Part shown: positions 21,568 through 58,633 of the stretch, one piece after another
Position numbering within the stretch: the first letter of the stretch is position 1
How the letters are laid out: every line of letters begins with the position of its first letter
Source of the DNA: Elusimicrobium minutum
GTDB taxonomy: Bacteria > Elusimicrobiota > Elusimicrobia > Elusimicrobiales > UBA9959
DNA length: 58,633 nt
Direction of reading: 5' to 3'
Assembly: GCA_020723765.1 (NCBI GenBank)
Contig: DYIF01000012.1
Location: forward strand, 1 to 58,633
Program-made: the position numbers and the translations under genes
Notes under the pieces: model-generated
What the model was told of the DNA's origin: nothing
The model's database searches: none
What the model saw: the letters and a program-made list of their open reading frames with translations, nothing else

Positions 21568-23961
21568 ATGGAAGGAAAAGACGAAAAAACGATAAAAAAA
21601 ATTTCTATAGATAAAATAACCGGAAGAAAAAAAGAAGTAAAGGTCGATAAGGATAAATTAAAAGCTTTTTTGGCTAAAAAGAAGCAGAAAGAAGAAGAGG
21701 TTAAAAAACAAGAAAAAGCCGAAGAGAAAACGACCGAAAAAGATAGCGAACAAAAGATTGAACCCGTTAAGGAAGAAACAAAGACCGCAAAAAAAACCAC
21801 CTCAGATAAGCAAATTAAACAAACTCAAAAAACTTCTGCGGTTCATAAAACAAAACAACAGGAACCCTCTTTGAAAGAACCTGAGGTTATAAAACAGAAA
21901 GATAAAGATATAGAAAATAAAAAAACCGAAGAACATAAGACTAAAGTTAAAGATACTCAGACCAAAGTCGAAGAACGGCATGTAAAATCAGAAGAGATAG
22001 AGCAGAAAACCGAAGAAGCCAATTTCGTGACGTATGAAATAAAAGAAACCAAATCGGCAAAACATCAAGATAAGAAGAAGGAAGATAAAACCAAAAAAGA
22101 AGAAAAAACCGAAGAAAAGCCCAAAACCCAGCAAAAATCGGAAGAACCCAAAAAAGAAGAAAAAATAAAGATAGAAAAAAAGGAAGGAGTCGAGTATAAA
22201 AAACTTAAAGTATCGACCACTCTTACGGTTAGAGATCTGGCCGAGAAATTGGGTATAAAGGCCGTAGATTTGATAAAAAAACTTATGAGCATGGGAATAT
22301 TCGCTTCCATAACTCAAAAATTGGAAGAAGATGTGGCGGCAGTCGTAAGTTTAGATTACGGTTACGAACTTGAATTTATTCCGGCTTTCGAAGATACGGT
22401 TATAGCCGACGAAGATGAAAAAGACGATCCGTCAAAATTAAAACCGCGATCCCCCGTAATAACTATAATGGGGCATGTGGATCACGGAAAAACGACGCTT
22501 CTCGACGCTTTAAGGCAATCCAATGTCGTAGATACCGAGGCGGGGCAGATAACTCAACATATAGGCGCATACATGATAAGGACTCCGAAAGGAAACATAA
22601 CCGTTTTAGATACCCCGGGCCACGAAGCTTTTACCGCGATGAGAGCCCAGGGAGTAAAAATAACCGATATCGTAATACTTGTGGTATCCGCGGTTGACGG
22701 AGTTATGCCTCAAACCATAGAAGCCATAAATCACGCGAAAGCCGCAAACGTTCCGATAATCGTAGCCATAAACAAAATAGACCTTCCGCAGGCAAATCCC
22801 AATAACATAAAACAGCAGCTTTCCGCCCATGATTTGATCCCGGAGGACTGGGGCGGTAAAGTTCCTATGGTGGAGATATCGGCGAAGAAAAAAACCAATA
22901 TAGACAAATTGCTGGAAATAGTTTTATTGCAGGCGGAGATAATGGAGCTTAAGGCGAACTATGAGGCGAAGGGGTTGGGCGTAATAGTAGAAGCGAAAAA
23001 AGACTCCAAGAGAGGAATAGTTTCCACCGTTATCTGTACGAAAGGCACCATAAAAATCGGAGACAGTTTCGTGGTAGGAACAACCTTCGGTAAAGTAAAA
23101 GCGCTTGTGGACGATAGAGGCCAGAGGCTTAAAGAATTGCTTCCTTCAATGCCCGCAGAACTTTTGGGAATAAACGAGGAAATACCGGTTCCCGGAGACG
23201 TTTTAAAAATAGTGGAAAGCGAAAAGAAAGCGAGAGAAATAGCCGAGAACAGAAAACAGATAAGAAAAGATAACATACTTCACCAAAAAAACATATCTTT
23301 GCTTTCATTAAAATCTCAGATAGAACAGAATCTTATCAAAAAATTAAACATAATATTAAAGACTGACGTTTACGGTTCTCTTCAGGCCATAAGAGATAGC
23401 CTTGAGAAATTCGCAAACTCCGAGGTAGCCATACATATACTTCATACCGGAATAGGAGACGTAAACGAATCCGATATAGCTCTGGCAAAGGCTTCAAACG
23501 GAATAATATTCGGTTTTAATATAAAAGCTTCGGATGAGATAAAAGAGAGAGCCAAAGAAAACGGCGTAGAAATAAGGATATACAGGATAATATACGAACT
23601 CTTCGAGGATATGAAAGCGGCTTTGAACGGAATGCTGGAACCGGAGATTGTGGAAGTGGAGATAGGCAAAGCGGAGATTAAGAAGATATTCGATATATCC
23701 GTCGGTAAGGTGGCCGGATCCATGGTCATAGAAGGAAAAGTCGCTCGTAACTCCATGGTAAAAATAATAAGAAACGGCGAAGTCGTCGGGGAAGGAAAGA
23801 TTTCCGGACTAAAAAAAGTAAAGGAAGACGTAAAGGAAATGGAAAAAGGGCATGAATGCGGGATATTAATCGAAGGGTTTAAAAATTTCCAGGAAGGAGA
23901 CATTATAGCCGCTTACGTAAAAGAAGAAAGAATAAGGAGAATAAATGAATTGGAGAGATGA
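21568..23961 (+). CDS. infB: translation initiation factor IF-2
   Basis: 797 residues. The first 210 or so residues are low-complexity Lys/Glu/Thr/Gln sequence, expected to be unstructured or coiled. A short IF2-N domain follows ([20 protein letters not shown]), then the GTPase: G1 GHVDHGKT at 302-309, G3 DTPGHEAF, G4 NKID. Domains II-IV complete the protein, including the C-terminal fMet-tRNA-binding barrel ([15 protein letters not shown]). AAAGGAG precedes ATG. The 3' end overlaps rbfA by 17 bases. Confidence 0.98.
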
Positions 23962-37134: not shown

Positions 37135-38343
37135 ATGGTATCTGTAGTTACCTATTATGAATTATACCAAATTAACCCTATTAAAGCCCGTATGAAATTA
37201 AAAGAATTGTTTTCAAAAACACAAAACGTTAGACAAATAGCAAGAATATTGTCTTGCTCTACTTCAACAGTATCTAAATGGGTTAAACGGGATAGTCTAT
37301 CTAATCTTTCTAAATCACCTAAAAAAACTAAAAGAAAAATACCCAATGATATTATTGATTTAATCAAATCAGAAAGAATTAAAACAAACTATGGCAGGAA
37401 AAGGCTTCAAAGGCATTTAAAAGATAAATATAACATCCTTATATCATCTGAAACCATAAAATATTACCTTAGGAAATTTAAACTTTCTAAACCAATTAAA
37501 CAAAGGTCAAGATATAAAGGGGTTAGTTATTATAACCATTCTGACCTTTTGCCTTTAGAGCATTTCCAGATAGATACCAAAGAAATCCTTGACTCAAAAA
37601 CGCTTCCAAGAGATATCTATAAATCAATCTTATTTAAAAAACTGCCCTTATACCAATACACCGCCATAGATGTTAAAACAAGAATAAAGTTTTTGGCATA
37701 TGCCTATAACAATAATAGAACTAATGCCTTAGCATTTATGAGAATACTTAATATGCACTTAAGACTTCATGACATAAAACATAGGTTATATTTTCAAACC
37801 GACTGGGGTGTGGAATATGGAGGATCTTCAAGTTTAACATGGTTAAAGCTTCAAAATAGCTTCTTTGAGCCTATGAATATAACCTTGCTTAAGATAAGAA
37901 AAAGGAAATGGACAGATAACGCTTATGTGGAAAGAACACATAGAACTGACGATGAAGAATTTTACATCCCTAAAATACCTCAGATGAACGATTTAAAAGA
38001 CTTTCTAAGACTGGCTTACGGATATGCGGTTTATTTTAACACAAAAAGAGCTCATTATGGTAAGCATATAAATGAAAGAACGCCTTTTCAAATGTTAAGG
38101 ATATTCCGGTCGGATATAAAGGAGAGTATTTGTTATCTGCCGCCGATATTATTGGATTATGTATCAAGCGATAATACCATGATTTCTGAAGAGTTGTTTA
38201 ATGAGATTTGTTATAATTTAAATATGAAAACTGTTCGCGATGTTACTACCACTTACTCCCGGAGAAAGAACTTCAAAAAGATAATCCGGCTCCGGTTTTG
38301 TTTTTGTTTCCGTTATTTTATAAAGAACGGATTTTTCCGCTAA
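37135..38343 (+). CDS. IS transposase, rve integrase core, C-terminus running into host DNA
   Basis: 402 residues. The N-terminal helix-turn-helix (about 32-52, VRQIARILSCSTSTVSKWV) and a second DNA-binding segment (86-118) precede the integrase core. The catalytic residues are Asp147 (HFQIDTKE), Asp223 (FQTDWGVEYGG) and Glu266 (NAYVERTH). AGGAGG eight bases before ATG 37135 sets the start. The frame passes through the right inverted repeat without a stop and ends in flanking DNA, so about 27 C-terminal residues (from 38259 on) are probably host-derived. All catalytic residues are intact, so it may be active. Confidence 0.88.
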   Translation: MVSVVTYYELYQINPIKARMKLKELFSKTQNVRQIARILSCSTSTVSKWVKRDSLSNLSKSPKKTKRKIPNDIIDLIKSERIKTNYGRKRLQRHLKDKYNILISSETIKYYLRKFKLSKPIKQRSRYKGVSYYNHSDLLPLEHFQIDTKEILDSKTLPRDIYKSILFKKLPLYQYTAIDVKTRIKFLAYAYNNNRTNALAFMRILNMHLRLHDIKHRLYFQTDWGVEYGGSSSLTWLKLQNSFFEPMNITLLKIRKRKWTDNAYVERTHRTDDEEFYIPKIPQMNDLKDFLRLAYGYAVYFNTKRAHYGKHINERTPFQMLRIFRSDIKESICYLPPILLDYVSSDNTMISEELFNEICYNLNMKTVRDVTTTYSRRKNFKKIIRLRFCFCFRYFIKNGFFR

Positions 38344-56856: not shown

Positions 56857-57921
56857 TTATTTGAAAAATTGTTTGTATTTCTCGGGTATATATGGATTAT
56901 GTTCTTTTTTGTAATCGTTCCATACTTCTTCGCCAAACGACTTTATTAGCCAGTTTATGTCGGTAGTGATTATTTCTAAGGCTTCGTCGGTTATATATCT
57001 TTTGCAGGTTTTCTTGTATTTGTGGTATTCGTCTTTGTCCCATTCAGAAAAAAAGTCTTTAAACTCGGCGTCTTTACGGTATTTGTTGTCAAACCCTTTA
57101 AAAACCTCATCCTCATCGCATTCTGGTTTTGTCTTACATCTTGGTTTGCATTCTTTCGGATTATCACATAGTTTATTTATCACTTCAAGCCGTTTCATCA
57201 TCATTCGAACTGTCGCTACCACGGGACGATAGCATAACTTCCTTTTATCTATATCTTTCTTGTCATTTGATTTATTGTTTAAAACCTGACATTTGTTATA
57301 GTATTTTTCGGCTATGTTTAGCATCCTTATTAAACTATCTTTAAACTTTTCATCACCTATCTGATTTAGTTTATATGCCACTTCTATGTCTTCTTTGAGG
57401 GTTTGAAAGGTGACTATTTTGGTTAATACCGGCGGGGGTGCTCCGGGCGTGGGGTCAAGATAAAATTTACTTTCACTTATCGAAGTAGTTGAAATATAAG
57501 ACCCCAAAAAATAAGGCTCAAAAAGATTATGATTAAAATCATATAAATTAACTTCATATATATATTTAGTATTTTCTATCCCAAACATAATTAAAGTATA
57601 GGTCCCTTTTAAAACCGGACTAAGGGTGAATTCAATGCTTTCATTATCTAACTCTATGTTTCCACTTTCATCTTCACTTGCCAAACGATTAGTAGAATAA
57701 GTAGCCCCAGGTATTTCATTAATATTAGATATTGTAGGAAAAATTGTAAAAGAAGATATAAAAGGATTATAACCAGATCTCCTATGAAAAGGATCTTCAA
57801 TTATAAAATGAACTTTCACATCTTTACTATCAGTTCCTGCAAATATATTTAGTGCACTCAAATTTCCAGCAAATAAATCATTACCCCTAATAAACAATAA
57901 TAAAATAATTATTCGCTTCAT
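56857..57921 (-). CDS. secreted protein with FIMAH-like helical domain, unknown function
   Basis: 354 residues. A short signal peptide (1-18, ending LFAG) is followed by a beta-rich domain (about 20-155) and a proline-rich linker PTPGAPPP (157-164). A helical segment at about 170-255 (LKEDIEVAYKLNQIGDEKFK onward) resembles FIMAH/FIVAR-like cell-surface helical repeats. The C-terminal 100 residues are highly charged with six to seven cysteines. It overlaps the preceding peptidase gene by four bases, so the two form a unit. Both are CpG-poor in comparison with the nuo genes, suggesting transfer. The fold assignment is tentative. Confidence 0.55.
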   Translation of the reverse strand: MKRIIILLLFIRGNDLFAGNLSALNIFAGTDSKDVKVHFIIEDPFHRRSGYNPFISSFTIFPTISNINEIPGATYSTNRLASEDESGNIELDNESIEFTLSPVLKGTYTLIMFGIENTKYIYEVNLYDFNHNLFEPYFLGSYISTTSISESKFYLDPTPGAPPPVLTKIVTFQTLKEDIEVAYKLNQIGDEKFKDSLIRMLNIAEKYYNKCQVLNNKSNDKKDIDKRKLCYRPVVATVRMMMKRLEVINKLCDNPKECKPRCKTKPECDEDEVFKGFDNKYRKDAEFKDFFSEWDKDEYHKYKKTCKRYITDEALEIITTDINWLIKSFGEEVWNDYKKEHNPYIPEKYKQFFK

Positions 57922-58633
57922 TTTATTTTAAACCTCCTAATGCCATTTACAGGACCAAAGGTATTTTTATTAATTTCATTAATAATGATTGATTTTTTGA
58001 TATCTAACAAAAATCTCTTATTTGTACCAGGATCAGAGATAATATACTTATCTCCACACTTACCTATTATGACTACAAAATGATTCCATTCTTCCTTCAT
58101 GTTTGTAACTGGATTTATCCAACTTCTATATACACGCACAATTACAGGCAATTTATCTTGTAAATCGCTATCAATAAGATTTTTTATTTCACTTTCAGTT
58201 ATTGAATTTAGCGGAATAGTATAATTATATACACCATTTGTGATTAATTTATTATTTGAAACTATATCAACAGATTCAAATTTGACATCATGTGTTATAG
58301 AATAACCTTTATTTTTCTTTAAAATTTCATTCAAAACCTCCGGATCTGTTATAGAAATTCTTAACTCAGGATATTGTTTAGCATAATAATTTATCAACGT
58401 AGCTAACGAAGTTAAAGCGCAACCACGCCAACCAATAGTTGCTTTAGGAGTAATTTCACAGTCGTTGTTAGCATAACAAAACGAACTCCAGGGCTGATTG
58501 CTCTGTGAAAAATGGTCATTAGGCAACTTCCCGCAACAGACAAACCTTACGCTGTTTTGTTCACTCACGCAATCCCAGCATTTAGCAGTTAGATAGTATT
58601 CTAATGGATTATCGCCTATCTTTATTCGGTTCG
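57918..58633 (-). CDS. C39-like papain-fold cysteine peptidase, 5' end beyond the window
   Basis: At least 238 residues. The frame stays open to the window edge; an internal GTG at 58568 is only one possible start, and the residues before it (LEYYLTAKCWDC) read as ordinary coding sequence. The C-terminal domain has FSQSNQPWSS, then the catalytic Cys in GWRGCALTSLATLINYY, His in NHFVVIIG and Asp in ISDPG, the C39-like peptidase pattern (also seen in bacteriocin-processing and surface enzymes). Several extra cysteines lie before the active site. Substrate and export signal cannot be seen here. Coupled to the FIMAH-like gene. Confidence 0.7.
   Translation of the reverse strand, partial: NRIKIGDNPLEYYLTAKCWDCVSEQNSVRFVCCGKLPNDHFSQSNQPWSSFCYANNDCEITPKATIGWRGCALTSLATLINYYAKQYPELRISITDPEVLNEILKKNKGYSITHDVKFESVDIVSNNKLITNGVYNYTIPLNSITESEIKNLIDSDLQDKLPVIVRVYRSWINPVTNMKEEWNHFVVIIGKCGDKYIISDPGTNKRFLLDIKKSIIINEINKNTFGPVNGIRRFKIK

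What the first reader, a model, noticed from the sequence alone, without database searches (positions are those of the whole stretch)
56857..58633. Coupled C39-like peptidase and FIMAH-like secreted protein in CpG-poor DNA
Two overlapping genes encode a papain-fold C39-like peptidase (N-terminus off the window) and a signal-peptide protein with a proline linker, a FIMAH-like helical domain and a Cys-rich charged tail. I count 12 CpG in 57961-58560, against about five or six per 60-base line in infB (22441-22560). The composition break, the unknown families and the tight coupling suggest an acquired surface or effector system. This is the best candidate in the window for an undescribed system.
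Basis: partly seen in the sequence, partly recalled or inferred. Interest (0 to 1): 0.6.

Follow-up and report, generated by a model that had tools for sequence, protein, structure and literature searches.

The report
Swappable split surface peptidase in Elusimicrobiota
At the edge of this Elusimicrobiota contig lies one copy of a secreted two-protein peptidase system, in which the catalytic domain of one gene and the matching front half of the next gene have been exchanged together between paralogues and genera while the surrounding parts stayed put, suggesting a surface enzyme whose working end is repeatedly replaced.

Summary
At 56857-58633 (- strand) two genes overlap by 4 nt (ATGA): A, the C-terminal part of a C39-like peptidase with Q/C/H/D intact, and B, a secreted beta-sandwich plus FIMAH-like helical protein. 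12 CpG in 57961-58560 is confirmed (window mean 28.8 per 600). But the composition break lies inside both genes, not around them.

The genome has three A-B copies, each at a contig end. Flanks are mostly 92-100% identical between the two closest copies, while a 1.05-kb core (C39 domain plus B's signal peptide and beta-sandwich) is only about 50%. Over 16 pairs in the family, C39 distances track B's N-terminal half (r=0.82) but not B's C-terminal half (r=0.08). AU tests reject a common history in both directions. Cores are poorer in GC3 in 15 of 16 pairs.

In other Elusimicrobiota families C39 and B's N-terminal domain are fused in one chain (6 cases). Relatives encode a sorting-tail protein and a PorV-like barrel next to A-B.

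Best reading: a two-chain surface-displayed cysteine peptidase with an exchangeable catalytic/partner cassette. Whether B's domain completes, targets or inhibits the peptidase is open; enzymatic activity is inferred.

The parts
57918..58633 (-). Gene A, 3' part (237 codons, open at the contig edge): end of an Ig-like/Big_1-type domain followed by the C39-like papain-fold peptidase domain
   Evidence: ORF; Pfam C39_2; full-length homologues of 646-800 aa with signal peptide, beta-propeller (some also fn3) and Big_1 upstream of C39
58525..58633 (-). Conserved upstream flank of the exchangeable core (end of A's stalk); 96% and 92% identical to the other two genomic copies
57470..58525 (-). Exchangeable core: C39 domain of A, gene junction, signal peptide and beta-sandwich of B; about 50% DNA identity between paralogues, low GC3 and CpG
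58419..58421 (-). Catalytic Cys codon (GCALT motif, residue 71 of the fragment); Q43, H184 and D200 complete the site
   Evidence: invariant in 16 sequences; alignments
57918..57921 (-). ATGA overlap of A's stop and B's start (likely translational coupling)
56857..57921 (-). Gene B, 354 aa secreted protein: signal peptide, beta-sandwich, DPTPGAPPP linker, FIMAH-like helical domain with a Cys-rich charged insertion
56857..57465 (-). Conserved downstream flank (B linker and FIMAH-like half): mostly 95-100% DNA identity to copy C11 (80-88% in a few blocks), lower to C30; similarity ends at B's stop codon
56445..56795 (-). nuoA, the native downstream neighbour; in G001 and G013 the acyl-CoA dehydrogenase gene directly precedes nuoA (empty site)

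Best explanation
A and B encode the two chains of one exported, probably outer-surface, C39-like cysteine peptidase. A carries a stalk (beta-propeller and Ig/fn3 in relatives) with the catalytic C39 domain at its tip. B is the detached C-terminal half of the ancestral enzyme: a beta-sandwich that packs on or next to the C39 domain to complete it or set its specificity, then a FIMAH-like helical module. In relatives a Por_Secre_tail protein and a PorV-like barrel from the same operon probably export or anchor the complex. The C39 domain plus B's N-terminal domain form a cassette. Homologous recombination in the conserved flanks replaces it as a unit between paralogous operons and genera, changing the working end while keeping the stalk and the FIMAH half. 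Shown: gene structure, conserved catalytic residues, domain fusions, mosaic boundaries, linked history, composition. Inferred: peptidase activity, physical A-B complex, surface location, homologous recombination as the route, and the role of the exchange (changed specificity or escape from phage, predators or competitors).
For: C39-BN adjacency as a single chain with a 14-44 aa linker in six proteins from five families, and as coupled A|B genes in families f1 and f15. One fused protein also carries the Por_Secre_tail/g1 region. Catalytic Q/C/H/D invariant in the 16 aligned family sequences, with C/H/D kept in distant copies. Distances: C39 vs B-N r=0.82, p=0.0002; C39 vs B-C r=0.08, ns. The link holds inside class 1 (0.79) and class 2 (0.95). 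AU tests: B-C rejects the class-2 clade (p=1.5e-66); the core rejects grouping the G000 copies (p=0.002) or the G006 copies (p=1.5e-35). Sharp mosaic in the three G000 copies and in G004 A. GC3 lower in the core in 15 of 16 pairs. Models with pLDDT 84 and 86; best PDB match of the A fragment is staphopain in the staphopain-staphostatin complex, then C39-like 3erv. PorV and sorting-tail genes beside A-B.
Against: No direct evidence of proteolysis, complex formation or localisation. A's N-terminal part and its operon partners are missing from this genome's assembly at this locus. One B (G024) follows an M23 peptidase gene without A. Some distant loci have stand-alone B-N proteins beside fused ones, which fits an inhibitor as well. 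Structural matches are weak (TM about 0.4). AT-rich variable cores could partly reflect fast evolution rather than import.
Confidence: 0.5

Rival explanations
1. Peptidase with cognate inhibitor: B's beta-sandwich blocks the C39 active site during export, as staphostatin, Spi or the Bacteroides Bfi/Bti proteins do for their papain-like proteases; core exchange keeps enzyme and inhibitor matched.
For: Closest structural match is the staphopain-staphostatin complex. Bacterial papain-like proteases are often co-transcribed with a small specific inhibitor gene (PMC3462683). Linked evolution. Stand-alone B-N genes near fused ones.
Against: In five families the domain is fused C-terminal to C39 in one chain, unusual for a dedicated inhibitor. 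B carries a large extra conserved FIMAH-like half and a conserved Cys-rich insertion, not needed for inhibition.
Confidence: 0.22
2. Polymorphic toxin with immunity: the C39 tip of A is an antibacterial toxin domain delivered by the stalk; B is an exported immunity protein protecting against it.
For: Modular constant stalk/variable tip, exchange of the tip with the next gene's start, and multiple copies per genome resemble polymorphic toxins; Tox-PL-C39 domains are described in such systems (PMC3482391). The A fragment's fourth PDB match is a T6SS effector-immunity complex (9jdd).
Against: Immunity genes are normally replaced whole; here only B's N-terminal half moves and its C-terminal half is genome-constant. 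C39 and B-N are fused in cis in other families. No stand-alone toxin cassettes and no Rhs or WXG regions found.
Confidence: 0.15
3. Maturation pair: A's C39 domain cleaves B (for example at the DPTPGAPPP linker) to release its N- or C-terminal half; the variable parts co-evolve as enzyme and substrate.
For: C39 peptidases classically process partner proteins (established knowledge); B's proline linker lies exactly at the exchange boundary.
Against: No double-glycine-type motif at the linker; the linker itself lies in the constant part; fused forms would need cis cleavage.
Confidence: 0.1

Closest known systems
Staphopain-staphostatin, SpeB-Spi and Bacteroides C10 protease/Bfi-Bti operons
   Same: Papain-fold secreted peptidase next to a co-transcribed gene for a specific partner (PMC3462683); staphopain is the top PDB match
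   Different: Here the peptidase is C39-like on a long stalk; the partner has an extra FIMAH-like half; partner domain and peptidase are fused in relatives; only the partner's first half is exchanged together with the peptidase domain
Polymorphic toxin systems, including Tox-PL-C39 (PMC3482391)
   Same: Constant N-terminal stalk, variable C-terminal catalytic tip, recombination between paralogues
   Different: The neighbouring gene is mosaic with a constant C-terminal half, is secreted, and is fused to the catalytic domain elsewhere; no toxin or immunity activity known
Type IX secretion (PorV, Por_Secre_tail cargo)
   Same: Relatives' operons contain a PorV-like barrel and a sorting-tail protein; one fused C39 protein has a sorting-tail region (sub-threshold in Pfam, 23.3 of 27 bits)
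   Different: A and B of the window lack a detectable sorting tail; SprA-like translocon matches in Elusimicrobiota are below the curated cut-off
Pfam Peptidase_C39_2 (PF13529) secreted proteins
   Same: Fold, catalytic residues, hit above cut-off
   Different: Linked partner gene and cassette exchange are not part of that family's description

Membership tests
Peptidase_C39_2 (PF13529) | Pfam score above the gathering threshold | tested here: met
   28.2 bits vs cut-off 24
Peptidase_C39_2 (PF13529) | Catalytic Gln, Cys, His, Asp present | tested here: met
   Q43, C71, H184, D200 invariant
Peptidase_C39_2 (PF13529) | Peptidase activity | not testable with these tools
   needs a bench assay
FIMAH (PF22888), gene B | Pfam score above the gathering threshold | tested here: not met
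   no FIMAH hit for any of 18 family B proteins; distant B in L152 scores 23.5 of 24.8
FIMAH (PF22888), gene B | Homology of the helical half to an accepted FIMAH domain | tested here: inconclusive
   aligns with the FIMAH part of fused P0001, prob 89 vs reversed control 0.2; FIMAH-like with an insertion
Polymorphic toxin system | Variable C-terminal catalytic domain on a constant stalk, exchanged by recombination | tested here: met
Polymorphic toxin system | Separate immunity gene replaced together with the toxin | tested here: not met
   only the N-terminal half of B is replaced; it is fused to C39 in other families
Polymorphic toxin system | Toxicity and immunity phenotype | not testable with these tools
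   bench assay needed
Staphopain/staphostatin-type protease-inhibitor pair | Adjacent coupled genes | tested here: met
   ATGA overlap; conserved A-B order
Staphopain/staphostatin-type protease-inhibitor pair | Partner has the staphostatin fold | tested here: not met
   Foldseek of the B model does not return staphostatin among the top 50 listed; no match at E<=0.001
Type IX secretion cargo | Por_Secre_tail/CHU_C C-terminal domain on A or B | tested here: not met
   no such hit on A or B; found on the neighbouring gene and, sub-threshold, on one fused homologue

The most novel reading that the evidence does not exclude
An undescribed polymorphic surface-peptidase system of Elusimicrobiota. A split enzyme's catalytic domain and its partner domain, encoded on either side of a stop/start junction, are replaced together as a cassette between operon copies and between genera, on a constant T9SS-like display apparatus, diversifying the tip much as tips of polymorphic toxins or surface receptors are diversified.
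Probability: 0.5. Interest if true: 0.75.

Novelty: new variant of a known kind. Interest (0 to 1): 0.6.

Why it matters
It shows domain-level cassette exchange that spans a gene boundary and keeps two matching domains together, a natural record of which domains work together. It points to a diversified surface peptidase apparatus in a little-studied phylum, linked to PorV-like and sorting-tail proteins, and gives testable predictions: A binds B, and cognate cores cannot be mixed.

Tried and rejected
(1) Gene pair wholly foreign: rejected, the flanks are native and genome-specific. (2) A-B as ordinary core genes: rejected, 16 of 101 relatives carry B and syntenic empty sites exist. (3) Correlation driven only by the two big classes: rejected, it holds within each. 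(4) C3 right end as the missing left part of this locus: not established. C3 has acdA, then a further gene, and ends in a multi-copy repeat motif found at many contig ends; A's stalk was not found anywhere in the assembly. (5) Pattern scan of genome contigs with the window protein alone found nothing; a family alignment found 12 named loci, all Elusimicrobia. (6) The whole-B Foldseek search gave no meaningful match. (7) A literature search for 'FIMAH' gave only two uropathogenic E. coli fimbria papers; the only paper with both Elusimicrobiota and type IX secretion names the phylum once.

Full report
WHAT IS THERE. The window is a complete contig (C5) of a 2.1-Mb, 98%-complete genome. Named loci of the same gene family all come from Elusimicrobia/Elusimicrobiales MAGs, so the genome belongs to the Elusimicrobiota by kinship. 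On the minus strand, gene A runs in from the contig edge and ends at 57918; its stop overlaps B's ATG (ATGA), and B ends at 56857, 61 bp before nuoA. A's visible part is a Peptidase_C39_2 domain above the Pfam cut-off. B has no Pfam or NCBIfam family.

FULL ARCHITECTURE FROM RELATIVES. Intact A genes are 646-800 aa: signal peptide, beta-propeller (SBBP), Ig-like Big_1 and/or fn3, then C39 at the end; the fused P0001 has LamG in place of the propeller. B follows directly. In several genomes two further genes precede A on the same strand (g1 then PorV): a small Por_Secre_tail protein (27.2-30.7 bits, cut-off 27) and a PorV/UPF0164 barrel. HMMs built from these find them beside A-B in G006, G012, G016, G030 and G044, the PorV and sorting-tail genes in another order in f15 G196, and the sorting-tail gene alone in both G004 loci and G022. 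In this genome the stalk of A is not in the assembly; 16 PorV-like matches occur elsewhere in it.

MOSAIC. The genome has three A-B copies, each at a contig end (C5, C11, C30), plus a 36-aa remnant of B on C23 that abuts a repeat motif found at many contig ends. Aligning the three copies shows 92-96% identity at the A edge and, for C5-C11, mostly 95-100% over B's last 600 bp. The 1.05 kb between them, 58520-57470, falls to about 50%. The boundaries are the CCGKL motif at the start of the C39 domain and the DPTPGAPPP linker between B's beta-sandwich and its helical half. In G004 the two paralogous A proteins share 43-74% identity over the propeller and drop to about 20% where the Ig/fn3 and C39 domains begin.

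LINKED HISTORY ACROSS THE GENE BOUNDARY. For 16 A-B pairs, pairwise distances of the C39 domain correlate with those of B's N-terminal half (r=0.82, Mantel p=0.0002). They do not correlate with B's C-terminal half (r=0.08, p=0.16), although the two halves of B are one polypeptide. The pattern holds within class 1 (0.79) and class 2 (0.95), and A's stalk correlates with none of the other parts. Paralogues in one genome share 62-93% of B's C-terminal half but only 18-44% of the core. Trees agree. B's C-terminal half groups the three G000 copies (100/97) and rejects a class-2 clade (p-AU 1.5e-66). The core unites class 2 (100/100), pairs G000C11 with G021 and G000C30 with G006C164, and rejects grouping the G000 copies (p 0.002) or the G006 copies (p 1.5e-35).

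COMPOSITION. In family f1, GC3 is lower in C39 than in B's C-terminal half in 15 of 16 pairs (p 0.0003), and in B's N-terminal half likewise (p 0.00015). Against A's stalk both are lower in 11 of 12 pairs (p 0.001). CpG o/e follows. Import, or long residence in AT-rich donors, is the simplest reading; fast evolution alone is not excluded.

FUSIONS. A profile search of 341 phylum genomes found B relatives in 27. Outside family f1, C39 and B-N occur in one chain in G173, G168, G239 (twice) and G235, and inside f1 in G005; they occur as adjacent genes in family f15. Linkers are 14-44 aa. P0001 of G005 reads LamG - Big_1-like - C39 - beta-sandwich - FIMAH (the Big_1-like part is by alignment to A, not a Pfam hit). 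Class-2 split cores nest with the fused proteins (99/96), and fused/split changes at least twice on the core tree. So fission/fusion happened more than once, or recombination moved cores into the split frame.

SITES. In G001 and G013 the acyl-CoA dehydrogenase gene directly precedes nuoA where A-B sits here. In G024 the response regulator-polA junction lacks the cassette present in G004. In G021 A-B lies between rplL and rpoB. The cassette is thus an accessory, scattered element.

STRUCTURE AND MECHANISM. AlphaFold models from family alignments are confident (B pLDDT 83.9, pTM 0.82; A fragment 85.6, 0.82). The A fragment resembles staphopain (1y4h), C39-like 3erv, a T6SS effector (9jdd) and the PCAT1 peptidase, all weakly (TM about 0.4). 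B's model has a beta-sandwich and a helical bundle with the Cys-rich insertion before the last long helices, with no confident solved relative. The fusion, coupling and linked-exchange evidence makes a physical partnership of C39 and B-N likely. I favour a two-chain enzyme over an inhibitor pair because the partner is fused in cis in five families. Activity, complex and surface display remain inferred.

VERDICT. Observation confirmed; interpretation partly supported. The unexpected result is a cassette exchange that crosses a gene boundary and keeps two domains matched.

Noticed in passing
G000:C6:7260-8684 and 60 of 61 genomes searched (L160, L161): A protein of about 1800 aa with sub-threshold matches to SprA (TIGR04189, up to 84.5 bits, cut-off 200) in nearly every Elusimicrobiota relative, with PorV-like paralogues and Por_Secre_tail proteins: a possible type IX-like translocon outside Bacteroidota.
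   Followed up: partly
window 37135-38343 (+): An rve-type transposase ORF overlapping the only other strongly CpG-poor patch of the window (about 36.8-37.7 kb), next to a purB-like gene. The assignment is by reading the translation; no family search was run.
   Followed up: no
G000 contigs C1, C9, C14, C16, C18, C25, C27, C31 (starts), C3 (end), C4 and C23 (inner): A 25-bp motif TTTA[GC]A[AC]ACTTTATTATACATAACC near many contig ends, probably the terminal repeat of a multi-copy insertion sequence that broke the assembly.
   Followed up: partly
L004 1501-1608 (C23) and L063 1311-1613 (G001): Remnants of B: 36 aa abutting the repeat motif, and a 101-aa C-terminal piece, suggesting turnover of A-B loci.
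   Followed up: partly
L058 14494-16414 (G024): A B gene without A, directly downstream of an M23/LysM peptidase gene; partner replacement or orphan.
   Followed up: no
L056 1-4738 (G006): Tandem arrangement: A-B followed on the same strand by a second sorting-tail gene, PorV and the start of another A.
   Followed up: no
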